Below are positions 12,731-30,034 of a DNA stretch of 64,000 nt, in pieces. Numbering within the stretch: position 1 is the first letter of the stretch; each line of letters starts with the position of its first letter. This DNA comes from Gemmatimonadales bacterium (lineage in GTDB: Bacteria; Gemmatimonadota; Gemmatimonadetes; Palauibacterales; Palauibacteraceae). The translations under genes were made by a program, and so were the position numbers. Location: positions 62,001 to 126,000 of the forward strand of contig VXQX01000081.1 in NCBI GenBank assembly GCA_009838765.1. Reading direction: 5' to 3'. The notes beneath the pieces were generated by a model. It made no database searches. It saw only the letters and a list, made by a program, of their open reading frames with translations, and was not told the origin of the DNA.

Positions 12731-12752
12731 CCGTTTCTCCGATCTGTCTCCA

Positions 12753-13895: not shown

Positions 13896-14039
13896 CTGGC
13901 GATTCCACCCTGTTGTTCGGAATATGAAATAGTGATCGGACCCGGTTGAGGTCGACCAACTTGAAGCCGGCGGCGTCAATCCGCGAGTGCCAATCCGCGA
14001 GTGTACGCGGTCGTGTCTGTTTCGAGCGGAGGAGGAACG

Positions 14040-15138: not shown

Positions 15139-17571
15139 CTAGCGGCCGATGAGCGTCAGAAAGCGGGGATGCTCGCGCACGCGCTCGAAGTCGTCCGCGC
15201 CCGGCAGCGTCCGCCGTCGTCCGGGATTGAGTTCGACCGCCCGCTCCAGGGCGTTGAAGGCGTCATCTTCTCGCCCGCTGTCGAGCAGGAGCGCCGCCAG
15301 CGTCACCCACGCGTTGTCGTTCTCCGACGACCTGGCCGTGGCTTCGCGCGCCAGCGCCAGGGCACCCTGCAGGTCGCCGTCGCGCCTCAGCCGCGAGGCT
15401 TCGCGCAGCATCTGGCCCGACCGGTACATGTCGAGAACTCGGCGCAGTTCGGCGAGTGGTGCGTCGTGGTCGTCCACCCGGATGTCGACGACGCGGTCGC
15501 TGTAGCCGCCGTTGACGCGCGGCGCCACGACGAGGATGGCGCCGGACTGCATGCCGCGCGCGTCGCCGCCAGCGGCCTGCGCGGCGTCGAGTGCATCCAT
15601 GAGCCGTTCCGCCAGCGGGCCGGTGGACGATTCGAACGAGGCCGCCATGGCGTCGACGACCTCGGGCCCCGTGAGGATGTTCCCCTGCGCGCAGTAATCC
15701 ACTCCGCACCGGTGGCCCTTCCAGTCGCTCGCGCCGGCGCCGGTCCAGGCGGCCGTCCGCCCCTGCTGGTCGAGGATGGCGACCTGGCGGCGATCCCGGC
15801 CCTCGTCGCTCCCCACCATCATCTCGAGAGCCTCCTCGGGCGAGTAGCCGGCCTGGAGGAGCTCGATGCCGATGGCCCCGTACATGGGATTCGCGGCGGC
15901 CTGGTGGGCGATGATCACGAGTCCGCCCTTCGCGTGCATGGCACGGTTCCCCGCCCCGAACGCCTTCGACTGCACGCCCATTCCAAGCTCGCCGGTCGCG
16001 GGATCGCGCCCGATGATCGAGTACGTGCCGAGGTAGTTCGGGTCGAGGAGGTCCGCGTCGCCCGAGGCCGGAACCATCTGCGGCTCGGGGACCGCCTCGG
16101 GCGAGGCCCAGGCGCCGCCCAGCGCGCGATGGACGGCCAGCCTCGCCAGAGCCAGGTCTCGCGTCGCACCCGCCAGCGCCGCCTCGACGTTCAGGAGCGT
16201 GCGCAGGGCGTCCAGATAATCGGTGTAGCCCACGACCCCGGACTCGTACCGCTGCGACTGCAACTCCATCGTCCCCAGCGCCTCCGCACGCTGGGAGGCG
16301 AGGAATGCATGCCGTCGCGTTTCGTTCTCCAGACCCGCGAGGGCGGTTTCGACTTCGTTCACCGCCGTTACCACGGTTCGTCCGTACGCCGCTGCGGCCT
16401 CATCGAAGCGGCCCTCGGCCAGCGCGAGATTGTTCCGGAGGCGGCCGGCCTGGAAGATGGGCGCGGTCAGGTTCGTGATCAGGTTCGTGAACCATTGCTG
16501 CGCGTTGAAGAGTTCTCCTGCGTCCGCGCTGGCGAGCCCGATGGAACCGGAGAGCGAGAGCGAGGGGAGCAGTTGGGCCCGGCGCGCGCCGATGCTGTAG
16601 CGGGCCGCGTCCAGCCGCTGACCCGCCGCCCTCACGTCGGGCCGCTGGTGCAGGAGATCCGCCGGTATCCCGGCGGGGACGGGGTCCGCCGCCAGTTGCG
16701 GCTGGAGAGAGTCGGGCAGGATCGCCTCGACATCCTCGCGATAGCCGCCCAACAGAACGGCGAGCCGTGCCTCGGCACTCGTAAGGTGCGTCTCGAGCTG
16801 CGGCAGCCCCGCCTGCGTGTTCCTGAGGTCCTGGCGAACCTGGGACAGCGTCCAGGAGTCGATCAGGCCGCGATCATAGCTGGTCGAGGCCAGCGACTCG
16901 CGTTCGAGCAGCACCTCCACCGTCTCGCGGGCCAGTCCGGTCTGCCGCCGCAGGCTGACGATGTCGAAGTACGTGGAGATGGTCTCGGCCAGGATACCGA
17001 TCCGCGCCGCATGGAACTCCGATTCCGAGGCCAGGTATTCCGACCCCGCCGCCCGGGCGTCGTTGCGGGCGCGCCCCCAGAAGTCCAGCTCCCAGGCAAA
17101 ATCCGCGCTGACCGAATACGTCGTCAGATCGATCCTGTCCGGAAACACGAAACCCGCGATCGAATCCCCCGGCCCGCCCAGCCCGAGGGCTTGTATCTGC
17201 GCGCCGATGCCGGCGTCCGTAGGCGTGTCGGTATCGGTGACGTTTCCGCTGGCCCCCACGCTCGGGAAGAGGTCGGCCCGCGCGATGCGCGCCCTCGCGC
17301 GAGCCTGCCGGACCCGCGCGACGCCCGCGGCGAGGTCGAAGTTGGAGGCGAGCACGGAATCGACCACCGCGTCGAGCACCGGATCCCGGAACGTCGTCCA
17401 CCACTCCAGCGGCTCGTACGTCCCCGGCTGCAACTCCGCCAGGAAGTCCTCCGGCATCTCCGCCACCGGCTCCGGAAGGGACGGCCCCGGAGCCAGCGAA
17501 CAGGCGGAGAGCAGCAGGAGCGGGAGGGCCCCCGGCAGTTTCATCGGACGCGGTACTCCGGTGCGCGCCAT
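15139..17571 (-). CDS. Fusion: TolC/NodT-family outer membrane lipoprotein plus DUF1028 Ntn-hydrolase-like domain
   Basis: Single open frame of 810 residues. Residues about 1-490 form a complete NodT/OprM-type outer membrane factor: signal with lipobox LLLSAC, EPLEWWTTFRDPVLDAVVD, repeated alpha-barrel segments, LLHQRPDVRAAGQRLDAAR, and the usual ending VHRALGGAW. A linker of about 25 residues leads to a full DUF1028 domain from about residue 516 (GTYSIIGRDPATGELGMGVQ; later QGNILTGPEVVDAMA and DIRVDDHDAPLAELRR), then a TPR-like tail of about 85 residues. DUF1028 belongs to the Ntn-hydrolase superfamily, where the nucleophile is an N-terminal Thr; Gly515-Thr516 would be the equivalent processing point (inference). 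OMF termini are periplasmic, so the extra domain should be too. ATG 17571 lies 7 bases after the upstream stop; ATG 17544 is an alternative with a GGAG 11 bases ahead. No inner-membrane pump or adaptor gene is adjacent. Confidence 0.85.
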   Translation of the reverse strand: MARTGVPRPMKLPGALPLLLLSACSLAPGPSLPEPVAEMPEDFLAELQPGTYEPLEWWTTFRDPVLDAVVDSVLASNFDLAAGVARVRQARARARIARADLFPSVGASGNVTDTDTPTDAGIGAQIQALGLGGPGDSIAGFVFPDRIDLTTYSVSADFAWELDFWGRARNDARAAGSEYLASESEFHAARIGILAETISTYFDIVSLRRQTGLARETVEVLLERESLASTSYDRGLIDSWTLSQVRQDLRNTQAGLPQLETHLTSAEARLAVLLGGYREDVEAILPDSLQPQLAADPVPAGIPADLLHQRPDVRAAGQRLDAARYSIGARRAQLLPSLSLSGSIGLASADAGELFNAQQWFTNLITNLTAPIFQAGRLRNNLALAEGRFDEAAAAYGRTVVTAVNEVETALAGLENETRRHAFLASQRAEALGTMELQSQRYESGVVGYTDYLDALRTLLNVEAALAGATRDLALARLAVHRALGGAWASPEAVPEPQMVPASGDADLLDPNYLGTYSIIGRDPATGELGMGVQSKAFGAGNRAMHAKGGLVIIAHQAAANPMYGAIGIELLQAGYSPEEALEMMVGSDEGRDRRQVAILDQQGRTAAWTGAGASDWKGHRCGVDYCAQGNILTGPEVVDAMAASFESSTGPLAERLMDALDAAQAAGGDARGMQSGAILVVAPRVNGGYSDRVVDIRVDDHDAPLAELRRVLDMYRSGQMLREASRLRRDGDLQGALALAREATARSSENDNAWVTLAALLLDSGREDDAFNALERAVELNPGRRRTLPGADDFERVREHPRFLTLIGR

Positions 17572-17578
17572 CGCGTGC

Positions 17579-18295
17579 TCAGGGCGCGATGCTGAAGCCG
17601 AACACGAGGTGCGCCCGGTCCCGGTCGGGATTCAGGATGTACGCGACGCTCACCGGCACGGCGAAGGTGTCCGTGATCGCGAGGTCCTTGCTCGCCGTAA
17701 CCCCCAGATTGACCACGGCCGCTTCGTCGGTGCCGTAGAAGTCGCTCTCGCCGCCCACGAACCCCAGGTGCAGCCCGACATCCACCCCCGACATCTCGAA
17801 GGGCACGCCCACCTCCGCGTACAGCACGCTGCTCTCGGTAAGCACACCCCCGAAAAGGGAGATCGGGAAGGTCTCCGGACCCGAGAGGCCGAGCGACATC
17901 TCCACCGTGTGCGCCGCGCCGGCCCCGAAGCCCGCATCGGCGCCGGGCAAGGGGAAGTAGTAGTCGGTGATCCCGACCGCGACGGAGAGGCCCGATTCGG
18001 CCGTCACCGTGTAGGTCGCCCAGAGATCGTTCTCGTTGGCATGGGCACCCGACGCGGAGATGGAGTACGAACCCCACGCGCCGAACTCGAGCCCTCCGGC
18101 CCCGAAGGTGATCGCCGGTTGCACGGCCATGGATTCGCCGAAGTCGACGCCGCGCCAGACGTAGCGGCTCACGACATCGGCCCCGATCGAGGCGGACTGC
18201 CCCCACACGGGGACGGCGAAGGTAAAGAAGGCCGCGACGGCTGCGGCGAGCCGGAGACCCTGGAATCGGAACGAATCAGCGCGGATCACGGACAC
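17579..18295 (-). CDS. TorF-family putative porin (gcw_chp)
   Basis: Outer-membrane beta-barrel protein of 238 residues. Signal peptide ending VWGQS, then SIGADVVSRYVWRGVDFGES, the hallmark start of the TIGR02001/TorF-like family, followed by alternating beta-strands and a short hydrophobic end. Members of this family often sit next to amtB/glnK in Proteobacteria (from memory), and here an amtB begins the same gene string. Its start overlaps the transglutaminase stop by 10 bases and its stop is 7 bases from the TolC/DUF1028 start, so it is almost certainly co-transcribed with both. Confidence 0.85.
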   Translation of the reverse strand: MSVIRADSFRFQGLRLAAAVAAFFTFAVPVWGQSASIGADVVSRYVWRGVDFGESMAVQPAITFGAGGLEFGAWGSYSISASGAHANENDLWATYTVTAESGLSVAVGITDYYFPLPGADAGFGAGAAHTVEMSLGLSGPETFPISLFGGVLTESSVLYAEVGVPFEMSGVDVGLHLGFVGGESDFYGTDEAAVVNLGVTASKDLAITDTFAVPVSVAYILNPDRDRAHLVFGFSIAP

Positions 18296-19158
18296 GATGC
18301 TTCTCCTCTCTCAATGGTGACCCGGGTGCGGAGCATCGACTCCGCCGAACCCCGGAATACGCCGCGAGTGGGCGGAACGTCGGCATAATCGCGGCCCACC
18401 GCGACTCGCACATGGCGCACATCGCATTGTGCGTCGTTGGTCGGATCGAAGCCGATCCATCCCGCGCCGGGAAACCAGCTCTCGACCCAGGCGTGGCTTT
18501 CACCCCTCGTCACGCCACCGCCGTTCCCGCCGTCCGGACCCAGATAGCCCGACACGTACCGGGTCGGGACCCCCCATCCCCGCAGGATCGCGGCCATGAC
18601 ATGTGCGTAGTCCTGGCATACGCCCTCGCGGCTCTCGAGGATGCGCTCGATCGGCGAATCCACGGCGGTCGTACCTGGAATATAATCAAACGACTCGTGG
18701 AGCCGGCTGCGCAGGGCCGTGGCGGTCTCCAGCGGGTCGTCCCCGCGTTCGAGGCCGCAGCTCCTGATGAAATCGGCGAGAAGCGGCGAGGAGCGGACGT
18801 AATGGCTGGGTTGCAGCATCAGCCCGAGTTCGGGAGCGCGCGCCGCGGCGTCGAGCCGGGGCCACGCGTCTTCCCCGATCTGACGGGGCGCGTCCGGTAT
18901 CGGACCCACCTCCACGGTCGAACGTCCGATGATCGAGAGACGGCGATGCGTCCCGGGGCGATCAAAAAAGTGGCCCCGATTGTGGAAGGGTCCTTCGAAT
19001 TCGAACACGGGACCGGAGGGGTCGGTCTCGATCGCGAACCCGCGTACGACCTGTCTTCGGTCCTGCACGGGATGCAGGTAGAGCGTCATGACGGACGCCT
19101 GAACCGGCGCGCTGTACACAAACTCGACCGTGTGTTCGATCGTGTAGCGCGCGATCAC
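18286..19158 (-). CDS. Transglutaminase-like cysteine protease/ligase (COG1305)
   Basis: Cytoplasmic protein of 290 residues. The N-terminal beta domain begins VIARYTIEHTVEFVYSAPV. The catalytic core shows the Cys in REGVCQDYAHVMAA, His in GESHAWVESWF and Asp in WIGFDPTND. This is the partner that normally travels with alpha-E and the circularly permuted ATP-grasp protein in a predicted peptide ligation/modification system. The GTG start at 19158 overlaps the alpha-E stop as GTGA, so translation is coupled. Reaction may be amide hydrolysis or transfer; the substrate is unknown. Confidence 0.88.
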   Translation of the reverse strand: MIARYTIEHTVEFVYSAPVQASVMTLYLHPVQDRRQVVRGFAIETDPSGPVFEFEGPFHNRGHFFDRPGTHRRLSIIGRSTVEVGPIPDAPRQIGEDAWPRLDAAARAPELGLMLQPSHYVRSSPLLADFIRSCGLERGDDPLETATALRSRLHESFDYIPGTTAVDSPIERILESREGVCQDYAHVMAAILRGWGVPTRYVSGYLGPDGGNGGGVTRGESHAWVESWFPGAGWIGFDPTNDAQCDVRHVRVAVGRDYADVPPTRGVFRGSAESMLRTRVTIERGEASCP

Positions 19159-20162
19159 GACGGGAACCCCGCGGTCACCGGATAGTCCACGTACGTGGCC
19201 TGAACGAGGTCGTGCAGGGCCCGGCTGTCGCGTGTCAGAGGCTCGAAGGGCTCTCCGGGTGCAGCGTCGGCTGCGGCGTCGGGCGCGGCGTCGGCTGCGG
19301 CATCCGGCTCGCCCGGATCGAGTTCGAGGGCGGCCGAGATGCGAAGCGCCAGGCGGTGCGGCGCGGCGAGCGGCGGACGCCCGCCGGCCGGGTCGATTCC
19401 CCGCAGCGTCGACTCGATGCGGCCGGTCGCGTAGTGCAGCGACCGTGAAACCTCCGGGTTCCGCATCAGAAAGCCGAGCACGCAACCGCGACGCAGCGTG
19501 AGCGACCGGTCCCGGCGGTAGGGCTCGAAGGCGCCGCACACGCGCAGCAGATCGGCCCAGGAGAGGGCCAGGCCGTCGTCGTCCGGCCGCGCGATCCGAT
19601 CCCATACATCGAGCAGCACGATCTGCTGCTGCAGCCGTTCCACGTAGCGGCCGAGTTCGAGGAAGCGCCACGCGTCGTCCCGCGCCATGTTGGCGTCGAC
19701 GACCCCGGCGAGGAGTCGGAGCCGGTCGATCGCCCGGCTCACCAGAGCCACCGGCCCTTCGCCCCAGGCGTCGGCGAACTCCGTCTCCTGGAGCCAGAGG
19801 TATCCCTGGTTCAGGCACACCCACACGGGCAGGGGCAGCCTGGGCCGGATTTCCCTGGCGTTCTCCCGCGCCATCCCCCAGCACGAAATCATCGATGCCG
19901 GGTTCGTCGTGTCCTCGACGAGGCCGCCCGTCAGCGTGTAGGCATCCGCGATGAGGAAGGCTTCGGCCTCGTCCACATCGGTCGGCGCCGGGGGAGGGGG
20001 CTGACTCAGGGCCCGGTAAACGACGCGCCACCCGAGGGCGATTTCGTCGGCGTCCGCATCCACGAGCCGGGTCAACTGATACTCGAGCAGGCGAGCCGTG
20101 TTTTCGGTCCGTTCCGCGTAGCGGCCAAGCCAATAGAAGTTCGCCGCCATCCGGGCTAGCAT
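19155..20162 (-). CDS. Alpha-E domain protein (DUF403/COG2307)
   Basis: All-helical protein of 335 residues starting MLARMAANFYWLGRYAERTE, the signature of alpha-E proteins, with NQGYLWLQETEFADAWGEGP and RFLELGRYVERLQQQIVLLD later on. Biochemical role unknown; it is a constant neighbour of circularly permuted ATP-grasp ligases. Near the C-terminus it carries an Ala/Asp-rich low-complexity stretch (DAAADAAP repeated) encoded by a 24-base tandem duplication. It lies 24 bases after the ATP-grasp gene and is coupled to the transglutaminase. Confidence 0.88.
   Translation of the reverse strand: MLARMAANFYWLGRYAERTENTARLLEYQLTRLVDADADEIALGWRVVYRALSQPPPPAPTDVDEAEAFLIADAYTLTGGLVEDTTNPASMISCWGMARENAREIRPRLPLPVWVCLNQGYLWLQETEFADAWGEGPVALVSRAIDRLRLLAGVVDANMARDDAWRFLELGRYVERLQQQIVLLDVWDRIARPDDDGLALSWADLLRVCGAFEPYRRDRSLTLRRGCVLGFLMRNPEVSRSLHYATGRIESTLRGIDPAGGRPPLAAPHRLALRISAALELDPGEPDAAADAAPDAAADAAPGEPFEPLTRDSRALHDLVQATYVDYPVTAGFPS
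19263..19310. repeat. 24-bp tandem duplication inside the alpha-E gene
   Basis: Two adjacent 24-base units (19263-19286 and 19287-19310) differing at a few positions. In the alpha-E frame they encode two copies of an Ala/Asp/Pro octapeptide, probably a flexible linker that expanded by slippage. Confidence 0.6.
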
Positions 20163-20186
20163 CGTCCGTCGCCCTTCACCCGGCCG

Positions 20187-21686
<1,500 letters not shown>

Positions 21687-21710
21687 CGAACGCTACCCGC
21701 GGGCGGGCGC

Positions 21711-23120
21711 TCAGTCCGCGTCGCGGAAGTCGTTGTCGTCGTCGGGGTCCACCATGAGGATGAACTCCGGATAGGCGTCGATCCCGAGTTCCGCCGCGTC
21801 CTGGCCGATGCTCTCGACGCTCCGCGACACGCGAACGCCCAGCGTCCTGTCGAGCACCGTCCAGAGGATCCACGAAATGGAGAAGACGAACGCACCGATG
21901 GCCGCGACGCCGGTCAACTGCACGACGAAATCGCCGCCGGCCGCGATGCAGGTGGCGAGCGTGCCCCAGACTCCGGCGAACAGGTGCGCGGGCACCGCCC
22001 CGACCACGTCGTCGATCCTCCGCACCTCCAGCAGCTTCAGCCCGAACATGCACAGGAGGGAGCCGATGGCCCCGATCAGAATCGCCCACAGCGAGTTGGT
22101 GATGTTCGGTCCGGCCGTGATCGCCACCATTCCGGAGATCGCCCCGTTGAGCGTGGCGAAGAGGTCGACCCGGCCGAGTATGGACCTGGACAGGCAGAGC
22201 GCCGTGATGACGCCGGCCCCGGCGGCGAGGTTCGTGTTCACGAGGATGTTGCTCATCGAAACCGCGTTGACCACGCCCGAGAGGGCGAGTTCGGAGCCGC
22301 CGTTGAAGCCGAACCAGCCCATCCAGAGGATGAACACCCCCAGCGTGACCGCGGGGATGTTCGACGGGGGGGTCGGCTTGATGGAGCCGTCCTTGCGGTA
22401 CTTGCCCCAGCGCGGGCCCACGACGAGCGCGCCGGCAAGCGCTGCCCAGCCGCCCGTCGAGTGCACGATCGTCGAGCCGGCGAAGTCCGTGAAACCCATC
22501 TGCCCGAGCCAGCCGCCGCCCCACGTCCACGCGCCGACGATGGGGTAGATGACCGCGGTGAGCCCGCCCACGAAGACGAAGAAGGTCCAGAGCTTGACCC
22601 GCTCGGCCAGCGCGCCGGAGACGATCGAGGCGGTCGTGGCGACGAAGACCATCTGGAAGAACCAGTCCGACATCACGGCATAGCCGTTCTCCGTGACGGC
22701 GGCCGCCGCACCTTCGTTCCCGCCGATGAGCGCCACCTCGTCCGCGGAGGGGCCGTAGAGGAGGCTGATCGATCCGATCACGCTCCCGACGTCGACGTAC
22801 ATGAGGTTGTAGCCGATGACGTAGTACGTGAGACCCGCGATGGCGTACAGTCCGATGTTCTTCATGCAGATCATCGACGCGCTCTTGGACCGCACGGACC
22901 CGGCTTCGAGCATTGTGAACCCCGCGCACATCCACATCACGAGCACGCCCCAGACGAGGAACGAGTACGTGTTGAGGACGAATCCGAGATCACCGGCAAC
23001 GTCCTGCGCGGCGAGGAGGGCCGGCGCCAGGAGGAGGCCTGCTCCGGAGAGCAGCGCGGCGGTTGCGAGGTTCCTTCCCGCCGCGAACCGGCGGGGCCAG
23101 CGTACCTGATGGGTGCTCAC
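21711..23120 (-). CDS. amtB: Ammonium transporter AmtB
   Basis: Inner-membrane ammonium channel of 469 residues. Signal-like first helix, then 11 helices with the family motifs: MLEAGSVRSKSASMICMKN, DWFFQMVFVATTASIVSGALAE (split across TM4-5), GGWAALAGALVVGPRWG with the first pore region nearby, and VPAHLFAGVWGTLAT with the C-terminal pore His. GTG at 23120 is taken as start because GAAGGAG lies 6 bases upstream; the ATG at 23156 has no such site. The C-terminal cytoplasmic tail ends in an Asp-rich stretch (MVDPDDDNDF). No glnK/PII gene follows; instead the ATP-grasp gene begins 24 bases later. Confidence 0.92.
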   Translation of the reverse strand: MSTHQVRWPRRFAAGRNLATAALLSGAGLLLAPALLAAQDVAGDLGFVLNTYSFLVWGVLVMWMCAGFTMLEAGSVRSKSASMICMKNIGLYAIAGLTYYVIGYNLMYVDVGSVIGSISLLYGPSADEVALIGGNEGAAAAVTENGYAVMSDWFFQMVFVATTASIVSGALAERVKLWTFFVFVGGLTAVIYPIVGAWTWGGGWLGQMGFTDFAGSTIVHSTGGWAALAGALVVGPRWGKYRKDGSIKPTPPSNIPAVTLGVFILWMGWFGFNGGSELALSGVVNAVSMSNILVNTNLAAGAGVITALCLSRSILGRVDLFATLNGAISGMVAITAGPNITNSLWAILIGAIGSLLCMFGLKLLEVRRIDDVVGAVPAHLFAGVWGTLATCIAAGGDFVVQLTGVAAIGAFVFSISWILWTVLDRTLGVRVSRSVESIGQDAAELGIDAYPEFILMVDPDDDNDFRDAD

Positions 23121-23303
23121 GGCGGCTCCTTCTTCAACAGGTTTTTGTCCGATCATGGCCCTTCCCGACTCGCGGTTTAGGTTGCGTCCCTGCTTGGCAT
23201 CGCGCAACGGGTTCTCGGTGCGCCGGTAGCCGAACGGCGGCGGCCGGCTATCTTCGGGTGTGGCCGGGCTCCACCGGAATCTTCGACGAGAGGGCATATC
23301 ACC

Positions 23304-24362
23304 ATGTGGAAACGCTCCATCGGAGTGGTCGCCGCATTTGGTTTGGGATTGACGCTCCCTGCCGTCCACCCCCTCCATGCCCAGGAAATCCGGGCGCGTG
23401 GCGGCTCCACCGTCACCGTGGGCGCCCGGGTCCAGGCGCAATACGAGGCTTCGAGCGTTGACGAGACGCCAACATCGTTCTTCATCCGCCGCGCGTGGGT
23501 GACGATCGACGGGAAGCTCAACGATCTCGTCGCAGGGAGGGCCCAATTCAACATCGACGGCGCATCGGTGCTGGAGGCCTACCTGGAACTCACGCCGAGC
23601 GAAGCGTTGCAGATCCAGCTGGGGCAGTTCAAGAAGGGAATGTCCTACTTCTGGCTGGTCCCCAACGCCTGGCTGCCGATCATCGAACGAGACGCCCGGG
23701 TCACGGGCGTGAATCACTGCCCGGGCGTCGGGAGCGTATGCACCTTCGGCCGTCTCACCGACGCGCTGGGCCTGGACAACTACGAGCCGGGCCTCCTCGC
23801 GCAGGGGCGCGTGAGCGAGCACTTCGGCTACCGGTTCACGCTCACCAACGGCGAGGGGATCGGGAACCTGGACGTGAACACCGGGAAGTCGGCCTCGGGC
23901 CAGCTCTCTCTCTTCCCGACCGGTGGGGACACGCGGGTGTCCGCCTACTTCGCCCTGGACGAGACGTTGAACAGCCGGGAGGAGACGATGGGCGTTCCGG
24001 CGGTCGGCGCCGAAGTGGAACTCGGGACATGGCTCGGCGGCCCCCACCTGATCGCCAACGTTCTGCAGGGCCGCAACTGGAAGCTGAACGATGACGCGAA
24101 GTTCTCCGCCTTCCAGTTCATGGCCTTCTGGTATCTTCCCACGGCACCGGAGTCCGGGTTCTCGGGGATCGAACCGATGCTTCGGGTGAGCTGGGTCGAT
24201 TCCGGCGCGGAAGATCCCGAAAAGGTCACCGGGACGGTGGTCACGCCCGGCGTGATGGTGTACTTCACGGGCCGAAACGGGATCTCCACGAACGTGGACT
24301 TCTACAGCTCTGGCGGCCGGTCGGACTGGTCCTGGAAGGTGCAGGCGTTCGTTTTCTTCTGA
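23304..24362 (+). CDS. Phosphate-selective porin O/P-like outer membrane protein
   Basis: Outer-membrane barrel of 352 residues. Signal peptide ends HPLHAQE; the mature protein starts with a beta strand VTVGARVQAQYEAS and FFIRRAWVTIDGKLNDLVAGR, typical of OprO/OprP-like porins, and the chain ends in FVFF with a terminal Phe as recognised by the BAM machinery. Divergent from amtB with a 183-base gap. Could admit phosphate or other anions; specificity is not readable. Confidence 0.82.
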   Translation: MWKRSIGVVAAFGLGLTLPAVHPLHAQEIRARGGSTVTVGARVQAQYEASSVDETPTSFFIRRAWVTIDGKLNDLVAGRAQFNIDGASVLEAYLELTPSEALQIQLGQFKKGMSYFWLVPNAWLPIIERDARVTGVNHCPGVGSVCTFGRLTDALGLDNYEPGLLAQGRVSEHFGYRFTLTNGEGIGNLDVNTGKSASGQLSLFPTGGDTRVSAYFALDETLNSREETMGVPAVGAEVELGTWLGGPHLIANVLQGRNWKLNDDAKFSAFQFMAFWYLPTAPESGFSGIEPMLRVSWVDSGAEDPEKVTGTVVTPGVMVYFTGRNGISTNVDFYSSGGRSDWSWKVQAFVFF

Positions 24363-24446
24363 TCGGGCCCGGACGGGCCGCGACGAATCAACGGATCGAG
24401 GGGCGCGCTGCCGATCCGGCGCCCACCCGATCCGCCTCCCGGCCTC

Positions 24447-24782
24447 CTACTTGAAGCTCGCCTGAGCTTCGTCGACCGTATCGAAGACCTTGGTCAGCCG
24501 AACGAAACCGCTGACTTCCAGCACTTCGAGGATATTCTCCGGGACCTGGCACAGGGCGAGCCCGCCGCCGGCCTGGTTGGTCTTGCGGATGGCGATCAGC
24601 AGCGCCCGCAGCCCGGCACTGCTGATGTAACGCAGGCTCCCGCAATCCAGGACCAGGTTGGTCGCTCCCCCGTCGATGATGCCGGAGAGCTCCCCATCGA
24701 AGTCCTTGGCGTTGCTGGAGTCTACGCGCCCGCTGACCACCCCCACGGCGGTATCTCCCGAATAGCTGGTCTCAATGTTCAT
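24447..24782 (-). CDS. STAS-domain anti-sigma factor antagonist (RsbV/SpoIIAA-like)
   Basis: Cytoplasmic 111-residue STAS protein. The phospho-acceptor region reads LRYISSAGLRALL; aligning the Gly-Leu to SpoIIAA puts the phosphoserine at about Ser55. Dephosphorylated STAS proteins bind the RsbW-type kinase and release its partner. The gene overlaps the kinase gene by 11 bases, so they are co-translated. The 84-base gap to the convergent porin gene holds only imperfect GC hairpins. Confidence 0.88.
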   Translation of the reverse strand: MNIETSYSGDTAVGVVSGRVDSSNAKDFDGELSGIIDGGATNLVLDCGSLRYISSAGLRALLIAIRKTNQAGGGLALCQVPENILEVLEVSGFVRLTKVFDTVDEAQASFK

Positions 24783-25314
24783 CTGGCGATTCCTCGCTTC
24801 CGGCAGCCCCCAGCGGCTGCCTTAGGGTAAGGCAGTTGAAACCCTCGACCCGCTCGTACGCAAGCGTGTCAATAAAAGACTTCGTAAGGTGGATGCCAAG
24901 CCCCCCGATGGGACGATCCTCCGCCGCAAGGCTTATGTCCGGAGTTTCCGCGTCCTCAAGCGGGTTGAAGGGCCGACCGTTGTCTCGAATCGTGATCTCA
25001 ATGTCGGCGTCTCCGAGGCGAATGTCCACCGTGATGACCGGATCCTCCGTAACTCCCTCGAATCCGTAGGAGATGACGTTCGTCAGAAGTTCGTCCAGCG
25101 AGAGCTGAAAACGGAAGACGATATCGTTGGAAAGCCCGCGCTCGAGACAGAAGCGCTCGACCTCGTCCACCACGCGGCGTGGCTCGCTCGGGTCCTGCTT
25201 GACGGCGATCCGCACTCCCGCTCCGCTCCTGTCGGTTGGTTGTCCACTCGCTGTCCCGGGCGCCTCCGGCGCGCGCTCGGCACCGAAACTACGCATCCTG
25301 CCGAGGTTCGACAT
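24772..25314 (-). CDS. RsbW-like serine kinase / anti-sigma factor (HATPase_c_2)
   Basis: Cytoplasmic protein of about 180 residues with a GHKL ATPase fold: N box SLDELLTNVISYGFEG, G1 box TIRDNGRPFNP, G2 box GGLGIHLTKSF. This is the anti-sigma/serine kinase class that phosphorylates a STAS partner, encoded immediately downstream. ATG 25314 is chosen; a second in-frame ATG at 25296 is possible and the first 30 residues are low complexity. No sigma factor gene is found in the window, so its controlled target must be elsewhere. Confidence 0.87.
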   Translation of the reverse strand: MSNLGRMRSFGAERAPEAPGTASGQPTDRSGAGVRIAVKQDPSEPRRVVDEVERFCLERGLSNDIVFRFQLSLDELLTNVISYGFEGVTEDPVITVDIRLGDADIEITIRDNGRPFNPLEDAETPDISLAAEDRPIGGLGIHLTKSFIDTLAYERVEGFNCLTLRQPLGAAGSEESPDEH

Positions 25315-25462
25315 ATTGCGCGGCCGGTCCCCGGTTGTGGAGATTCCCGCACCGTGGCGCGGGGACCCCCGCGCCAAGATCGACAGGGACGATGACGACT
25401 GGACGCGGTTTCGGACAAGGGCGAGAACCCATGGCCGACGATTCACCTCAACCGAGGCCTCG

Positions 25463-26620
25463 ATGCCGAAGATCCTGGTAGTAGACGACGAACCCGATCT
25501 GGAGCTGCTCCTCCGGCAGAAGTTCCGGCGCCGGATCCGCTCGGGCGAATTCACGCTGGTCTTCGCCCAGAACGGGGTCGAGGCCCTCTCGGAGCTCGAG
25601 AAACACGACGATGTCGATGTCGTGCTCTCCGACATCAACATGCCCGAAATGGACGGCCTCACGCTCCTGGCGCAGCTGGGCGAACTCGACCGCGATCTCC
25701 GCGCCGTCATGGTGACGGCCTACGGGGACATGAAGAACATCCGCACCGCCATGAACCGCGGCGCTTTCGACTTCGTCACCAAACCGATCGACTTCGGAGA
25801 TCTCGAAACCACGATCGCGAAGACCCTGGAACACCTCGCGGTGATGCGAGCCGCGCTTCGCGACCGGGACGCGCTGGTGGCGTTGCGCCAGGAGCTGGGC
25901 GTGGCGGCGAGGATGCAGGAGTCGATCCTGCCGACGAACTACCCCAACGATCCGCGCTACGAGCTCCACGCGTGGATGACGCCGGCCCGCGAAGTGGGAG
26001 GAGATTTCTACGATTTCTTCCGCCTCGAGGAAGACCACATGGCGATCGTCATGGCCGATGTATCGGGCAAGGGCGTGCCGGCGGCCTTCTTCATGATGGT
26101 GAGCCGCACGCTGCTCAAGGGAACGGCGATCGGCGAGGCGGACCCCTCGGTCTGTCTCGACGAGGTGAACCGGCTTCTCATCAACGAGAACGAGGAGTCG
26201 ATGTTCGTGACCCTCTTCTACACCAAGTTCAATCCCGTGAACGGTCAGGCCACGTTCGCGAACGCCGGGCACAATCTTCCGTTCCTCATGAAGGCGTCGG
26301 GAGAGGTCGAGCAGATCGTCTCCGATCCCGGACTCGTGCTCGGGATCATGTCCGGGGTCGACTTCCCCAAGGGGTCGATCACGCTTGAACCGGGCGATGC
26401 CGTCTTCTTCTACACGGACGGCGTGACGGAGGCGATGAACGAGGATGGCGTCGAACTCGGCGAGAACGAGCTGGCCGAGGTGCTGGGCGAATGCCACGGC
26501 TCGTCGGCCGAAGACATCAACCGCCACGTGATACGGGCGGTGCAGGAACATGCGGGAGAGGCGGACCAGTCCGACGACATCACCTGCCTGACGCTTCGAT
26601 ACCTGGGGTCGCCCTCCTGA
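25463..26620 (+). CDS. Response regulator with SpoIIE/PP2C phosphatase output (RsbU-like)
   Basis: Cytoplasmic 385-residue protein. Residues 1-125 are a receiver domain (VVDDE, phospho-acceptor D57 in LSDINMPEMDG, T85, K107 in FVTKPID). A short linker helix follows (about 130-165, ELGVAARMQESILP), then a PP2C-type SpoIIE domain with metal ligands in GGDFYDFF, MADVSGKGVPAAF, FYTDGVTEAM and QSDDITCLTLRY. Phosphorylation by a histidine kinase should control dephosphorylation of a STAS antagonist. It is divergent from the kinase/STAS pair (148-base gap) and overlaps the next gene by one base. Confidence 0.92.
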   Translation: MPKILVVDDEPDLELLLRQKFRRRIRSGEFTLVFAQNGVEALSELEKHDDVDVVLSDINMPEMDGLTLLAQLGELDRDLRAVMVTAYGDMKNIRTAMNRGAFDFVTKPIDFGDLETTIAKTLEHLAVMRAALRDRDALVALRQELGVAARMQESILPTNYPNDPRYELHAWMTPAREVGGDFYDFFRLEEDHMAIVMADVSGKGVPAAFFMMVSRTLLKGTAIGEADPSVCLDEVNRLLINENEESMFVTLFYTKFNPVNGQATFANAGHNLPFLMKASGEVEQIVSDPGLVLGIMSGVDFPKGSITLEPGDAVFFYTDGVTEAMNEDGVELGENELAEVLGECHGSSAEDINRHVIRAVQEHAGEADQSDDITCLTLRYLGSPS

Positions 26621-27798
26621 TGCGGCGCCGGTCGTTCGCGATCGCGGCCGCCGTGGCGGCCGGCACGCTACCGGGCGCCGCCACGTCGCAGCAGAGCGAA
26701 GCCGCAACCGAGGGCGTGTACGCCGATTCCATCGTCTTCGGCCAGTCCGCGGCCCTCGAAGGGCCCGCGGGCGAACTGGGCCGCAACATGAACCTCGGCA
26801 TCCGGGCCGCGTTCGAGGAGGCCAATCGGGACGGCGGCGTCCACGGGCGCGCCCTCCGCCTCATCGTCCGCGACGACGGCTACGAACCCGAACCCGCCGT
26901 CGCCAACACTCAGGAACTCATCGAACATGGCGTGTTCGGCCTCATCGGCGCCGTCGGCACGCCGACCTCCGCCGCCGCGGAACCCGGCGCGAGCGAAGCG
27001 GGCGTCCCCTACATCGGGGCGTTCACGGGCGCCGGCCTCCTGAGGGGCCCGGACCAGCGTTACGTCGTCAACCTGCGCGCGTCCTACGACCAGGAAACCG
27101 AGGAGATGGTGGAACGCCTCGTGCGGGACCTCGACTTCCGTCGCATCGCGGTCTTCTACCAGGATGACAACTACGGGCTGGCCGGCCTGACGGGCGTCCG
27201 CAACGCGATGGACGCACTGGGCATGGAACTCGTCAGCGAGGCCCCGTACATGCGGAACACGCGGGCCGTGAAGCGCGGGCTGCTCGACATACAGGCCGGC
27301 AACCCGCAGGCCGTCATCATCATCGGCGCCTACATCCCCGTGGCGCACTTCATCCGGTGGGCGAAGAAGATCGGCCTCGACGTCCTGTTCGTGAACATCT
27401 CCTTCGTCGGCAGCTACGCCCTCCTCGACGAGCTGGGCCGCGCCGGAGACGGCGTCGTAGTGACGCAGGTCGTGCCCTTCCCCCGCGACCCGAGCATCCC
27501 CGTGGTGGCGCGCTACCAGGCCGCGCTGCGGGCGGTCGATCCCGCCGCCCGGCCGGGCTTCGTGTCGCTGGAAGGTTATCTGGCCGGGCGGCTGGTCGTG
27601 GAGGCGCTGGCAGCCGGCGATCCGGACGTTCGGCCCACGCGGGAATCCTTCCTCCGCACGCTGACCGAATCCGGCCCCATCGACCTCGGCGGGTTCACGG
27701 TCGAATACGGGGCGGACGACAACCAGGGCTCGGACCTCGTGTTTCTGACCGTGATTCGGGAGGGCGAGTTCGTTCCCGTGACCCGGCTCTCCCGGTGA
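26620..27798 (+). CDS. Periplasmic binding protein, LivJ-like (branched-chain amino acid type)
   Basis: Exported solute-binding protein of 392 residues. Signal peptide (about 1-24) then DSIVFGQSAALEGPAGELGRN, the start of type I periplasmic binding proteins of the Leu/Ile/Val and amide group; LIGAVGTPTSAAAEPGASEA and AVFYQDDNYGLAGLTGVRNA are fold-typical. No permease or ATPase is nearby. Its ATG overlaps the phosphatase stop (TGATG) and its stop overlaps the histidine kinase start (GTGA), so it is most simply a ligand sensor for that kinase. Confidence 0.88.
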   Translation: MRRRSFAIAAAVAAGTLPGAATSQQSEAATEGVYADSIVFGQSAALEGPAGELGRNMNLGIRAAFEEANRDGGVHGRALRLIVRDDGYEPEPAVANTQELIEHGVFGLIGAVGTPTSAAAEPGASEAGVPYIGAFTGAGLLRGPDQRYVVNLRASYDQETEEMVERLVRDLDFRRIAVFYQDDNYGLAGLTGVRNAMDALGMELVSEAPYMRNTRAVKRGLLDIQAGNPQAVIIIGAYIPVAHFIRWAKKIGLDVLFVNISFVGSYALLDELGRAGDGVVVTQVVPFPRDPSIPVVARYQAALRAVDPAARPGFVSLEGYLAGRLVVEALAAGDPDVRPTRESFLRTLTESGPIDLGGFTVEYGADDNQGSDLVFLTVIREGEFVPVTRLSR

Positions 27799-30023
27799 GT
27801 ACCGCAGGTCCCCCGGTGAAACAGAGCGACGAGCGCATCCACCGCGTCTTCGAGTGGGCGCTGGCGCGGCTCCCCGGCCGGCTCGGGGCGCGGGCTCGGG
27901 ACGCGACCGGCGGTCGGTTCGGCATCGGCAGCCAGATCGTCGTGGGACTGGGCGGCGGTGTGCTCCTGACGATCAGCGCCATCCTCCTCGCGCTCCTCCT
28001 GATGACCATCGTGGAGCGGGGACAGAGCGAGGTGACGCAGGAACAGATCCCTTCGCTCCTCGCGGGCCACCGCGTGACGCAGCACAGCGAGGCGCTGCTG
28101 CGCGCATCCCCGCAGCTCCTGTCGGCCGCCGACCCCGCGACGCTGGCGGACGTCCGGGCCGCCGTCCTGCTGGAGCAGGACAGCCTCCAGTACTGGGTCA
28201 GCGAGGTCGGCGGCGGAGCGGGGATGGATGCGGATGTCGCGGGTCTGGCCGAAGGCCTGGTGGCGAACATCAACGAGATCTACGAGTCGGTCAACAACAC
28301 GATGACCTACGCTGCGCGGCTCGCCGAGATGGCGGCGACCGTCGAGGAGACCGGACTCCGCCTGCAGTCGGTGCTCGAGGAGGCGATCGACGATCAGTAT
28401 TTCTTCATGCGCACGGGGCTCCGCCAGCTGACGGACGTGCCGGCGCCGGTTTCGCAGCGCCAGGCGCAGGACGAGATCGAGCAGCTTTACGGTCTCCTGA
28501 GCTTCAAGGCGTCGCAGAACCAGGCGATCACGCTCATCCAGCAGGCCTTCGCCGAGACGGATCCGGGGGAGCTGCTCGCCAACCAGGGGCGCGTCGAGAC
28601 CGCGCTCCGCGATGTGCGGGCGACGCTGCCCAGGATCCGCCCGCTCCTGAGGGAGACGCTGGCCGACGCGGTGAGCGTCCCCAGCGAGCTGTACGGAGGC
28701 TCCGCCGGCATCTTCCAGACCCGCCGGCGGGAGCTGGACGAGGTCGGCCGGGCCGAGGAACTGCTCGAGCGCAACCGGCAGACGACGGCGGAACTCGACA
28801 TGGGCGTCCGGGCGCTGATGGAGCGCGTCGAGGAGACCGCCCGGGATGCGGCCAGCCGCTCCGAGTTCCTCGTGCAACTGGGGTTCTGGTTCCTCCTCGC
28901 CGTGATCCTGTTCACGGTCGGCGCGGCCCGGGTCGCCTGGAAGACGTTCGGCCGCTCGCTCATCGTTCGATTGAACAGCCTGTTTGCGACCACGCGCCGC
29001 ATGTCGGAGGGCGACCTCGAAGTGAAGGTGGAGGTCGAGGGCAACGACGAGGTCACCGACATGGCGCACGCGCTGGAGGTCTTCCGCAAGCACGCCCTCG
29101 AGGTGCAGAGGCTGAACCTGGTCGAGAAGCTGGCGCAGGAGGTGCAGACGAAGAACGAGGCGCTGGAGCAGACGCTCGACGACCTCCGGCGTACGCAGGA
29201 ACAGGTCATCACGCAGGAGAAGCTGGCCTCGCTCGGCGCGCTCACGGCGGGGGTCGCCCACGAGATCCGCAACCCGCTCAACTTCGTCAACAACTTCGCG
29301 GTGCTCTCGAAGGAACTGATCGAGGAACTCAAGGAGGAGATGAAGGAGGTCGCGGAGGGGAACGCGGAGCTGGACCGCGATTTCATCGAGGAGGTTCTCG
29401 GCGACCTCGACATGAACGTGACCAAGGTTCGGGAGCACGGAGGCCGGGCCGACCGCATCGTCGAGGGAATGCTGGCTCATTCCCGGGACGAAGCCGGCGC
29501 CGCCGAGACCATCGACGTCAACCAGCTCGTCGATGAGTATGCGAAGCTCGCCTACCACGGCCTGCGCGGCACGGACTCTTCGTTCAACGTGGCGCTGGAC
29601 CGCGATTTCGATGACGAAGCCGGCGAGGTCACCGGGATCGCCCGCGATCTGAGCCGGGTCTTCCTGAACATCGTGACCAACGCCTGCCACGCGACGGCTG
29701 CCCGCAAGGAGGAGGAGGAGGACGCCGACTATTCCCCCACCGTCGCGCTCAAGACGAGGGGCTACGAAGACCACGTCATCGTGTCGATTCGGGACAACGG
29801 CACCGGCATTCCGGACTCCATCGTCCGGAAGATCTTCGAGCCGTTCTTCACGACGAAGTCGGGGACGCAGGGGACCGGACTCGGGCTGTCGATCTCCCGC
29901 GACATCGTCGTCGGCCACGGCGGCGAACTCGAAGTGGAGAGCGAGCCGGGCGAGTTCACCGAGTTCCGGGTCAAGCTGCTCCGCGAGAGCAACATTTCCG
30001 AAGTGGCGGCGGCCGTGACATGA
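27795..30023 (+). CDS. Membrane sensor histidine kinase with periplasmic sensor region
   Basis: Inner-membrane histidine kinase of 742 residues. TM1 at about 45-73; a mostly helical periplasmic domain to about 350; TM2 (LGFWFLLAVILFTVGAARVA) near 360-380. A HAMP domain (MSEGDLEVKVEVEGNDEVTD) and coiled coil come next, then the H box with H489 in AGVAHEIRNPLNF, N box VFLNIVTNACHAT, G1 SIRDNGTGIP, F box KIFEPFFTTK and G2 GTGLGLSIS. Lacks a receiver of its own. GTG start at 27795 overlaps the binding-protein stop. Likely partner of the receiver-PP2C protein two genes upstream. Confidence 0.9.
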   Translation: MSTAGPPVKQSDERIHRVFEWALARLPGRLGARARDATGGRFGIGSQIVVGLGGGVLLTISAILLALLLMTIVERGQSEVTQEQIPSLLAGHRVTQHSEALLRASPQLLSAADPATLADVRAAVLLEQDSLQYWVSEVGGGAGMDADVAGLAEGLVANINEIYESVNNTMTYAARLAEMAATVEETGLRLQSVLEEAIDDQYFFMRTGLRQLTDVPAPVSQRQAQDEIEQLYGLLSFKASQNQAITLIQQAFAETDPGELLANQGRVETALRDVRATLPRIRPLLRETLADAVSVPSELYGGSAGIFQTRRRELDEVGRAEELLERNRQTTAELDMGVRALMERVEETARDAASRSEFLVQLGFWFLLAVILFTVGAARVAWKTFGRSLIVRLNSLFATTRRMSEGDLEVKVEVEGNDEVTDMAHALEVFRKHALEVQRLNLVEKLAQEVQTKNEALEQTLDDLRRTQEQVITQEKLASLGALTAGVAHEIRNPLNFVNNFAVLSKELIEELKEEMKEVAEGNAELDRDFIEEVLGDLDMNVTKVREHGGRADRIVEGMLAHSRDEAGAAETIDVNQLVDEYAKLAYHGLRGTDSSFNVALDRDFDDEAGEVTGIARDLSRVFLNIVTNACHATAARKEEEEDADYSPTVALKTRGYEDHVIVSIRDNGTGIPDSIVRKIFEPFFTTKSGTQGTGLGLSISRDIVVGHGGELEVESEPGEFTEFRVKLLRESNISEVAAAVT

Positions 30024-30034
30024 GGGGCCGACGC

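What the first reader, a model, noticed from the sequence alone, without database searches (positions are those of the whole stretch)
15139..23120. Six-gene unit linking ammonium transport, ATP-grasp/alpha-E/transglutaminase ligation and an OM channel with Ntn-hydrolase domain
Seen: amtB, CP-ATP-grasp, alpha-E, transglutaminase, TorF-like porin and TolC::DUF1028 lie on one strand with gaps of 24, 24, -4, -10 and 7 bases, so one transcript is likely. Known: the ATP-grasp/alpha-E/transglutaminase trio is a predicted peptide ligation/modification system, and a proteasome-like Ntn hydrolase is a frequent fourth partner in other genomes; TorF porins commonly sit near amtB. Inference: the locus couples ammonium handling to synthesis, trimming and export of an amide-rich peptide or modified product, with DUF1028 taking the Ntn-hydrolase role in the periplasm. 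I do not know of a described system with this composition.
Basis: partly seen in the sequence, partly recalled or inferred. Interest (0 to 1): 0.8.

Follow-up and report, generated by a model that had tools for sequence, protein, structure and literature searches.

The report
Sponge-symbiont ammonium and peptide-ligase island
A block of genes that joins an ammonium channel, an uncharacterised peptide-joining enzyme set and a nutrient-sensing switch recurs, whole or in part, in very different bacteria, most of them from sponges or corals, and in this one it landed beside a resident gene and fused with it.

Summary
The six genes exist as described, with the stated gaps, but are not one conserved six-gene unit. 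Five (amtB, CP-ATP-grasp, alpha-E, transglutaminase, TorF-like barrel) keep their order across two Gemmatimonadota families. The sixth, TolC::DUF1028::TPR, was found only in the window's genus (Candidatus Palauibacter). The run is half of a ~14-kb, 12-gene island; the other half is a porin plus a binding-protein/histidine-kinase/PP2C/anti-sigma/STAS partner-switching module. In 4 of 5 Palauibacter genomes without the ATP-grasp, a DUF1028-TPR gene with its own signal-like start lies divergently beside an amidohydrolase gene; in island genomes the island lies between these two genes, and its end gene, TolC, is fused in frame to DUF1028. So DUF1028 is best read as a captured resident gene, although it has the Ntn fold. 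Relatives of the ATP-grasp occur in records labelled with nine phyla, 60 of 80 with amtB or sensor genes nearby; 69 of 80 titles carry sponge or coral sample codes. Marine-type amtB, the sensor and the ATP-grasp co-occur almost one-to-one in 249 Gemmatimonadota genomes. Best reading: a horizontally spread, nitrogen-responsive variant of the Anbu-type ATP-grasp/alpha-E/transglutaminase system, without Anbu. Product and signal are unknown.

The parts
21711..23120 (-). amtB, marine-subtype ammonium transporter (GTG start; alternative ATG 23156)
   Evidence: PF00909 313 bits, TIGR03644 514.6 bits; D224, H232, H391 (numbering from ATG 23156) invariant in 25 of 25 aligned
20187..21686 (-). circularly permuted ATP-grasp ligase
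   Evidence: PF14403 514.7 bits; only solved relative by sequence 3n6x, a putative glutathionylspermidine synthase; dN/dS 0.079 in 11 Palauibacter loci
19155..20162 (-). alpha-E protein
   Evidence: PF04168 206.3 bits
18286..19158 (-). transglutaminase-like protein with conserved Cys, His and Asp
   Evidence: PF01841 and PF08379; C168, H209, D225 (numbering of the translation) invariant in 26 of 26
17579..18295 (-). TorF-like outer-membrane barrel
   Evidence: TIGR02001 19.9 bits, below cut-off; AlphaFold2 barrel with Foldseek hits to OmpG, KdgM, NanC, FapF
15139..17571 (-). TolC/NodT::DUF1028::TPR fusion (DUF1028 about 15445-16026); NodT part read as island, DUF1028-TPR as the resident gene
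   Evidence: DUF1028-TPR model pLDDT 91.7 matches 2imh
23304..24362 (+). porin O/P-like outer-membrane protein, divergent from amtB
   Evidence: PF07396 20.2 bits, just under the cut-off of 20.9; present in 11 of 12 Palauibacter loci (the other is cut) and 11 of 16 f5 loci
24447..24782 (-). STAS anti-sigma-factor antagonist
   Evidence: PF01740 65.5 bits; TIGR00377 63.3 bits, over its cut-off of 53.45
24772..25215 (-). RsbW-like HATPase_c_2 protein
   Evidence: PF13581 68.2 bits, over cut-off; RsbW equivalog models only 23-30 bits, below cut-off; start inferred at GTG 25215
25463..26620 (+). response regulator fused to SpoIIE/PP2C phosphatase
   Evidence: PF00072 88.5, PF07228 180.8 bits; RssB model 109.8 bits, below its cut-off of 700; start
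26620..27798 (+). Peripla_BP_6 periplasmic binding protein with a signal-like start
   Evidence: PF13458 187.5 bits; nearest solved sequence 4kv7; start
27906..30023 (+). sensor histidine kinase with TorS-like sensor region (5' end uncertain)
   Evidence: HAMP and HATPase_c; TIGR02956 TorS 126.7 bits, best stretch residues 20-441, below the equivalog cut-off of 676.5
16036..30019 (.). inferred extent of the inserted island between DUF1028 and the amidohydrolase gene
   Evidence: empty versus occupied site comparison
30020..31702 (+). flanking resident amidohydrolase gene, right border of the island
   Evidence: PF01979 45.5 bits; follows the kinase in the window and in 7 of 7 other occupied sites fetched

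Best explanation
The six genes are one arm of a horizontally spread, nitrogen-responsive island found mostly in sponge and coral symbionts (12 genes in Palauibacter, 11 without TolC in f5 Gemmatimonadota, parts elsewhere). Inferred working: a periplasmic binding protein presents a small nitrogen-containing ligand to a TorS-like histidine kinase; the response-regulator/PP2C enzyme then acts on a STAS/RsbW-type partner switch, which sets expression or activity of the amtB arm. Two outer-membrane barrels and AmtB bring in ammonium. In the cytoplasm the ATP-grasp ligase, with alpha-E and a transglutaminase that keeps its Cys-His-Asp, forms or rearranges amide/isopeptide bonds, as proposed for the Anbu operon but without Anbu. 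TolC::DUF1028 is a by-product of insertion: the island landed between a DUF1028-TPR gene and an amidohydrolase gene, and its end gene, a NodT-type TolC, was joined in frame to DUF1028, which keeps its own ancestral role. Shown: gene content, linkage, co-occurrence, empty and occupied sites, purifying selection. Inferred: direction of the insertion, signal, wiring, substrate, product.
For: Gene content. Five-gene order in 12 Palauibacter and 15 of 16 f5 loci; all eleven genes in the window's order in 8 of the 15 f5 loci (L097-L111). Family f1: ATP-grasp in 12 of 17 Palauibacter and 0 of 18 other genomes, amtB in 13 of 17 and 0 of 18, amtB beside the ATP-grasp in 12 of 12. 249 Gemmatimonadota genomes: 40 with full-length ATP-grasp, 33 of these with amtB within 3 kb; marine-type amtB of at least 495 bits in 34, of which 33 have the ATP-grasp (threshold set afterwards at a gap in the scores, 495.8 to 460.1); sensor binding protein in 35, of which 33 have the ATP-grasp (Fisher 7e-32), including six g33 genomes where it is on another contig. 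Other lineages among the 80 loci: amtB in 5 of 6 Binatota-I, 2 of 2 Immundisolibacterales-type and 4 of 8 Rhodospirillales-type loci; all five sensor genes in 4 of 4 Binatota-II/Entotheonella; RsbW-like plus STAS in 7 of 8 Acidobacteria-labelled loci. Glutamine synthetase beside amtB in 5 of 6 Binatota-I loci. Empty site in 4 of the 5 Palauibacter genomes without ATP-grasp; occupied site in 8 of 8. Tree: 7 Rhodothermales/Bacteroidota rows nest among Gemmatimonadota on starred branches. Literature: Anbu reported up in nitrogen limitation (PMC6376114, PMC5666114; passages); trio domains correlate with urea-metabolism domains in marine metagenomes (PMC3597751; passages).
Against: No expression, biochemical or ligand data exist. 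32 of 80 loci show no amtB in the flank held (only 52 of 80 have full flanks); Rhodothermales, Acidobacteria and several Proteobacteria have the ligase set without amtB, so amtB is not obligatory. No transglutaminase was found in the 4 Binatota-II/Entotheonella or the 8 Rhodospirillales-type loci. G035 has amtB and binding protein without ATP-grasp, G017 the binding protein alone; 7 of 40 ATP-grasp genomes lack the binding protein. A sigma-54-type motif scan of 300 bases upstream of amtB found none in 27 loci, so NtrC-type control is not shown. PMC5666114 (passage) also says expression of the Anbu operon did not change under various other conditions. Island GC is close to its flanks (67.4 against 68.5 and 69.3%). 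Habitat is read from record titles, partly by recall, with no background rate. The 80 loci were found with an alignment from AmtB-linked genomes, so the set is biased. AmtB linkage within the 56-row clade may be one inherited linkage, later rearranged, not several independent ones.
Confidence: 0.6

Rival explanations
1. One reading: one six-gene transcript makes, trims (periplasmic DUF1028 as the Ntn hydrolase) and exports through TolC an amide-rich peptide, coupled to ammonium handling.
For: Close spacing of all six genes; fusion under purifying selection in 11 loci; DUF1028 fold resembles Anbu; Anbu is the usual fourth partner of the trio (PMC6376114, passage).
Against: TolC::DUF1028 not found in the 15 f5 loci with the five-gene operon (2 of them hold under 1 kb beyond TorF); standalone DUF1028-TPR, 85-90% identical, at the empty site; no inner-membrane exporter in the operon; the residue before the invariant Thr varies and secreted forms have extra residues before it, so a free N-terminal nucleophile is not evident.
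Confidence: 0.1
2. The ligase set makes a host-directed or defensive bioactive metabolite (for example against grazers), and amtB and the sensor merely time its production to nitrogen supply in the host.
For: Most relatives found carry sponge or coral sample codes; a review table lists a seaweed metagenomic clone with ATP-grasp/alpha-E/transglutaminase/protease genes among antinematode activities (PMC7764037; passages).
Against: No dedicated exporter in the conserved form; the primary report of that clone was not read; the wider ATP-grasp family also occurs in free-living bacteria (Caulobacter and Synechococcus controls).
Confidence: 0.2
3. Linkage without a shared pathway: a nitrogen-acquisition island that carries the trio as passenger, amtB being the only nitrogen gene that matters.
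For: The operon copy is the only amtB in the 12 ATP-grasp-bearing Palauibacter genomes; amtB-less ligase loci exist.
Against: Sensor and ATP-grasp co-occur even when on different contigs (six g33 genomes); ATP-grasp, alpha-E and sensor lie together without amtB in the flank in Binatota-II and Entotheonella.
Confidence: 0.2

Closest known systems
Anbu operon (ATP-grasp, alpha-E, transglutaminase, Anbu; Iyer et al. 2009 recalled and not held; PMC6376114 and PMC5666114, passages)
   Same: Same three proteins in the same order; Anbu reported up in nitrogen limitation
   Different: No Anbu; amtB in front and a barrel behind; sensor/partner-switch arm; relatives mostly in sponge and coral bins
AmtB-GlnK nitrogen operons (recalled)
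   Same: Ammonium transporter with conserved pore residues
   Different: No glnK beside it; followed by a ligase set; marine subtype TIGR03644
TorT/TorS binding-protein-coupled sensor (TIGR02956; pairing recalled) and RssB/RsbU-type partner switching
   Same: Sensor region, adjacent periplasmic binding protein; response-regulator/PP2C, RsbW-like protein, STAS
   Different: Scores far below the TorS and RssB cut-offs; binding protein is Peripla_BP_6; output partner unknown; lies beside amtB and ligase genes
rlo operon of Pseudomonas (PMC12239564, passages)
   Same: ATP-grasp plus transglutaminase-domain protein in one operon with a protease
   Different: There the transglutaminase is inactive and membrane-bound, and the protease is retropepsin-like

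Membership tests
Anbu operon | CP-ATP-grasp, alpha-E and transglutaminase genes adjacent | tested here: met
Anbu operon | Anbu (proteasome-like) gene in the operon | tested here: not met
   no room between the genes; the one PF00227 match in the window's genome (95% complete) is on another contig, C53
Anbu operon | peptide-ligation activity | not testable with these tools
   no assay
Marine-subtype ammonium transporter (TIGR03644) | score over curated cut-off | tested here: met
   514.6 against 514; relatives straddle the cut-off, 13 of 249 genomes over it
AmtB-GlnK operon | glnK beside amtB | tested here: not met
   neighbours are the divergent porin and the ATP-grasp gene; no PII model was searched genome-wide
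TorF family (TIGR02001) | score over curated cut-off | tested here: not met
   19.9 against 47.15 bits
TorF family (TIGR02001) | outer-membrane beta barrel | tested here: met
   predicted barrel, pLDDT 79; a prediction, not a solved structure
DUF1028 / Ntn-hydrolase fold | family score and fold | tested here: met
   219.1 bits; predicted model matches 2imh at 2.5e-16 and Anbu 5nyw at 2.5e-4
DUF1028 as active Ntn hydrolase | free N-terminal nucleophile | tested here: inconclusive
   Thr invariant (54 of 54) but preceding residue variable and not at the N terminus
TorS | score over equivalog cut-off | tested here: not met
   126.7 against 676.5; similarity over the sensor region only supports 'works like'
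Partner-switching module | PP2C phosphatase, RsbW-type kinase domain and STAS together | tested here: met
   PF07228, PF13581 and PF01740 over their cut-offs; STAS also TIGR00377; RsbW equivalog models not reached
Partner-switching module | phosphorylation of STAS and control of a target | not testable with these tools
   no assay

The most novel reading that the evidence does not exclude
A symbiosis-specific, horizontally shared system in which a host- or community-derived nitrogen compound, sensed by a TorS-like binding-protein sensor and partner switch, turns on ammonium capture together with synthesis of an unknown amide-linked peptide that serves life in the sponge (nitrogen store, signal or protective metabolite).
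Probability: 0.3. Interest if true: 0.88.

Novelty: new variant of a known kind. Interest (0 to 1): 0.72.

Why it matters
[quoted passage not shown] This variant gives the trio three concrete handles: a physical and phylogenetic tie to ammonium transport, a candidate sensor whose ligand can be measured, and an ecological setting (mostly sponge and coral symbionts, in records labelled with nine phyla, with signs of cross-phylum transfer). It also gives a clear natural example of an island that lies beside, and is fused with, a resident gene.

Tried and rejected
Rejected: DUF1028 as the system's own Ntn partner (empty-site comparison). Rejected: the fusion as an assembly error (one frame in 11 loci of separate genomes, linker 27-30 aa). 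Tried without result: sigma-54-like sites upstream of amtB in 27 loci, none by my pattern; sigma-70 scan, 1 site against 0.7 expected, and 11 terminator-like matches against 5.9 expected, none in the gaps of the run; GC contrast of the island, weak. PF00227 search for Anbu: 33 of 35 genomes have a match, mostly one each, read as HslV because of this pattern; not proven for each, and contig numbers could not be tied to every locus. Papers: DUF1028 in 0 papers; 'circularly permuted ATP-grasp' with 'ammonium transporter' 0; 'ammonium transporter, SpoIIE, STAS domain, sponge', at least 3 of 4: 1, judged unrelated from its title and the start of its abstract; six-term sponge search, at least 4: 1, PMC7764037. 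Searches listed 4 and 12 papers on the trio's terms; of these I opened passages of PMC5666114, PMC6376114, PMC3597751, PMC7764037, PMC12239564 and PMC12096838. Iyer et al. 2009 was not held, so what it says about amtB neighbours is unchecked.


Full report
WHAT IS THERE. Domains: Ammonium_transp, CP_ATPgrasp_2, Alpha-E, Bact_transglu_N plus Transglut_core, a TorF-like protein with only a sub-threshold model match, and a NodT/TolC::DUF1028::TPR fusion. The TorF-like protein is predicted as a barrel (pLDDT 79) whose best structural hits include OmpG, KdgM, NanC and FapF. Transglutaminase C168/H209/D225 are invariant in 26 of 26 aligned sequences and AmtB D224, H232 and H391 in 25 of 25 (sequences with broken or cut genes were left out); that these are the catalytic triad and the pore residues is recalled. 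In 11 Palauibacter loci (G042 left out) dN/dS, by a pooled pairwise count of my own, is 0.195 amtB, 0.079 ATP-grasp, 0.177 alpha-E, 0.191 transglutaminase, 0.156 TorF, 0.106 TolC part, 0.028 DUF1028 part, 0.277 TPR tail; the TolC-DUF1028 linker varies from 27 to 30 residues with the frame kept.

FIVE GENES, NOT SIX. In the window's family f1 (35 genomes) the ATP-grasp occurs in 12 of 17 genomes of genus g1 and in 0 of 18 others; amtB in 13 of 17 and 0 of 18, and next to the ATP-grasp in 12 of 12. g1 is Candidatus Palauibacter: contig lengths of G165, G167 and G042 equal those of records so titled. tblastn maps show amtB, ATP-grasp, alpha-E, transglutaminase, TorF in that order in the Palauibacter loci (G172 cut inside amtB) and in 15 of 16 fetched loci of family f5; the exception, G095, and the 4 loci of f3/f6 have the ATP-grasp and transglutaminase (alpha-E detected in 4 of these 5) without amtB or TorF beside them. 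TolC::DUF1028 was found beside the operon in Palauibacter only: one ORF of 801-813 aa in 11 of 12 loci, while the coral-derived G042 has lost most of TolC. Two f5 loci (L103, L104) hold under 1 kb beyond TorF.

THE REST OF THE UNIT. Clustering ORFs around relatives of the ATP-grasp exposed further genes that recur beside it. In the window they are: a divergent porin 23304-24362, STAS 24447-24782, RsbW-like protein 24772-25215, response regulator-SpoIIE phosphatase 25463-26620, Peripla_BP_6 binding protein 26620-27798 and a histidine kinase about 27906-30023. The kinase matches TorS at 126.7 bits with its best stretch over residues 20-441, far below the equivalog cut-off; TorS works with a periplasmic binding protein (recalled), and here one lies directly upstream. 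The phosphatase matches the Pseudomonas RssB model at 109.8 bits, also below cut-off. Of the 15 f5 loci (L097-L111), 8 show all eleven genes (the island without TolC) in the window's order and orientation; the others are cut, lack the sensor nearby (g33) or have a glutamine synthetase gene inserted. No terminator-like match lies in the gaps of the six-gene run.

EMPTY AND OCCUPIED SITE. Five Palauibacter genomes lack the ATP-grasp. In four of them (G168, G169, G173, G088) a DUF1028-TPR gene with an N-terminal signal-like extension, 85-90% identical to the fused domain, lies divergently beside an amidohydrolase gene, in three followed by DUF305 and LVIVD genes. The distance between the matched parts is 308, 471, about 1100 and 3198 bases; in G169 and G173 another ORF lies between. 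The fifth, G059, has neither DUF1028 nor this amidohydrolase, only a 59% paralogue. In eight occupied genomes (window and L197-L203) the same amidohydrolase gene directly follows the kinase; coordinates of G042 and G166 agree, and G165 and G172 could not be tested because of contig ends. In three f5 loci no such amidohydrolase follows the kinase within 10 kb. The simplest history is insertion of a 12-gene block (NodT to kinase, window about 16036-30019) between DUF1028 and the amidohydrolase gene, with NodT joined in frame to DUF1028. The reverse, loss of the island with regain of a signal peptide, is less likely because unfused DUF1028 with a signal-like start is found through the phylum; it is not excluded.

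DUF1028. The fused domain is a true member (219 bits). Its model (pLDDT 91.7, 36 sequences) matches the DUF1028 crystal structure 2imh (E 2.5e-16), then proteasome subunits and Anbu 5nyw (2.5e-4). A threonine (T4, followed by S6) is invariant in 54 of 54 sequences; no lysine reaches 95%; the residue before the threonine varies (G, A, S, H, T), and many members have residues between the signal-like start and the threonine. Whether it is ever an N-terminal nucleophile is open.

PHYLOGENETIC PROFILE. In 249 Gemmatimonadota genomes 40 hold a full-length or nearly full ATP-grasp (E at most 1e-148); the other matches (E 7e-12 and weaker; 83 genomes match in all) were not counted. amtB of any type occurs in 131 of 249. 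Of the 40, 33 have amtB within 3 kb; the exceptions are G134, G033, G070, G052, G095, G234 and G097 (in G097 the two are on different contigs, amtB 0.2 kb from a contig edge). Marine-type amtB of at least 495 bits occurs in 34 genomes, 33 of which have the ATP-grasp; G035 does not (the broken G042 and cut G172 copies fall below). The threshold was set afterwards, at the gap between 495.8 and 460.1 bits. The binding-protein orthologue (E at most 1e-70) occurs in 35, of which 33 have the ATP-grasp; G035 and G017 do not, and 7 ATP-grasp genomes lack it. Fisher p is 7e-32, an overstatement because related genomes are not independent. In six g33 genomes the sensor is on another contig and still co-occurs.

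OTHER PHYLA AND HABITAT. One scan of 84,980 species genomes gave 105 relatives, of which the best 80 were kept. amtB is in 48 of 80 loci, alpha-E in 79, transglutaminase in 66, TorF in 37; 60 of 80 show amtB or at least two sensor genes; 52 of 80 have the full flanks (I drew the clades by hand from the tree). Arrangements differ: amtB directly upstream (Gemmatimonadota), about 1.2 kb upstream (L138, L176), downstream with glutamine synthetase (L129, L142, L144, L148, L149), or on the other strand beyond the sensor genes (L178, L188, L189, L191); ATP-grasp, alpha-E and all five sensor genes on one strand in L165, L167, L168 and L177; RsbW-like and STAS after the trio in 7 of 8 Acidobacteria-labelled loci, the eighth being the permafrost L192. 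Seven Rhodothermales/Bacteroidota loci have the trio alone in the flank held. The titles carry nine NCBI phylum labels, some of them doubtful. In the 86-row ATP-grasp tree the seven Rhodothermales/Bacteroidota rows lie among Gemmatimonadota on starred branches (100 and 99), reading five Pseudomonadota-labelled rows there as mislabelled f5 bins, and Binatota fall in two places; so transfer between phyla is likely, though quick-search supports and bin labels limit this. By title, 69 of 80 records carry sponge or coral sample codes (SB06xx 15, jk18x 21, p16x 5, RHO 12, APA 5, COS 2, CAR 1, Plut 3, binNN 4, Spongia 1), 10 are uninformative and 1 is permafrost. jk18x is confirmed as Ircinia (PMC9531527, passages); RHO, APA, COS and CAR fit the species list of PMC8163846 (passages); SB06xx, p16x, Plut and binNN are assigned by recall. 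No background rate was measured, and the query came from AmtB-linked genomes of this kind. Inside family f1 there is a partial control: ATP-grasp in 12 of 17 Palauibacter against 0 of 18 other genomes. PMC10469786 (passages) reports MAGs of the order from marine sediments (26), sponges (21), saline soils and waters; that the sponge ones are Palauibacter I infer from species names, not from its tables.

MECHANISM. Shown: a stable association of ammonium transporter, ligase set and sensor. Inferred: the sensor reads a periplasmic nitrogen compound; the partner switch controls the amtB arm; barrels and AmtB take up ammonium; the ligase set joins or rearranges amide bonds in the cytoplasm. The Anbu papers report Anbu up in nitrogen limitation, no detected peptidase activity of Anbu, and phosphate release from ATP by the operon's ATP-grasp (PMC6376114, PMC5666114; passages); a marine metagenome study found the trio's domains correlated with urea-metabolism domains (PMC3597751, passages). 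A metabolite with activity on animals is a serious rival (PMC7764037 table entry; primary report not read).

VERDICT. Observation confirmed; interpretation partly supported: right about the ammonium-ligase link and the fold of DUF1028, not borne out on the unit's limits, the role of DUF1028 and export. New variant of a known kind. That no paper describes this composition rests in an open-access library only.

Noticed in passing
L077 (G042, Candidatus Palauibacter poriticola, coral-coded bin): amtB and alpha-E are interrupted and most of TolC is missing, while ATP-grasp, transglutaminase, TorF and DUF1028 read through; either decay of the operon in a coral symbiont or assembly error.
   Followed up: partly
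L126, L128, L130, L164: Bins titled Gammaproteobacteria carry loci that group with family f5 Gemmatimonadota (L126 is a 10,002-base contig like G085:C114, which the genome tool places in f5); submitter labels look wrong.
   Followed up: partly
L129, L142, L144, L148, L149: A glutamine synthetase gene, 92-93% identical to that of L129 in the other four, lies beside marine-type amtB downstream of the trio. A more distant one (37-53%) lies in 10 of 31 f5-like loci.
   Followed up: partly
window 10890-14000: ABC transporter genes (binding protein and ATPase, polyamine-type by eye) lie beyond the DUF3500 gene left of the fusion; the ATPase is there in 10 of 11 other Palauibacter loci. The nearest solved ATP-grasp relative is named a putative glutathionylspermidine synthase.
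   Followed up: no
f5 genomes, e.g. G140 (10 matches), G045, G077, G098 (6 each): Many DUF1028 copies in one genome, several in long open frames, suggesting an expanded family of unknown role.
   Followed up: no
G057 (L112): TorF gene matches in pieces in different frames while its neighbours match whole.
   Followed up: no
G168:C17 (L207): A Palauibacter genome without the ATP-grasp has a different amtB (64% identical) elsewhere.
   Followed up: partly
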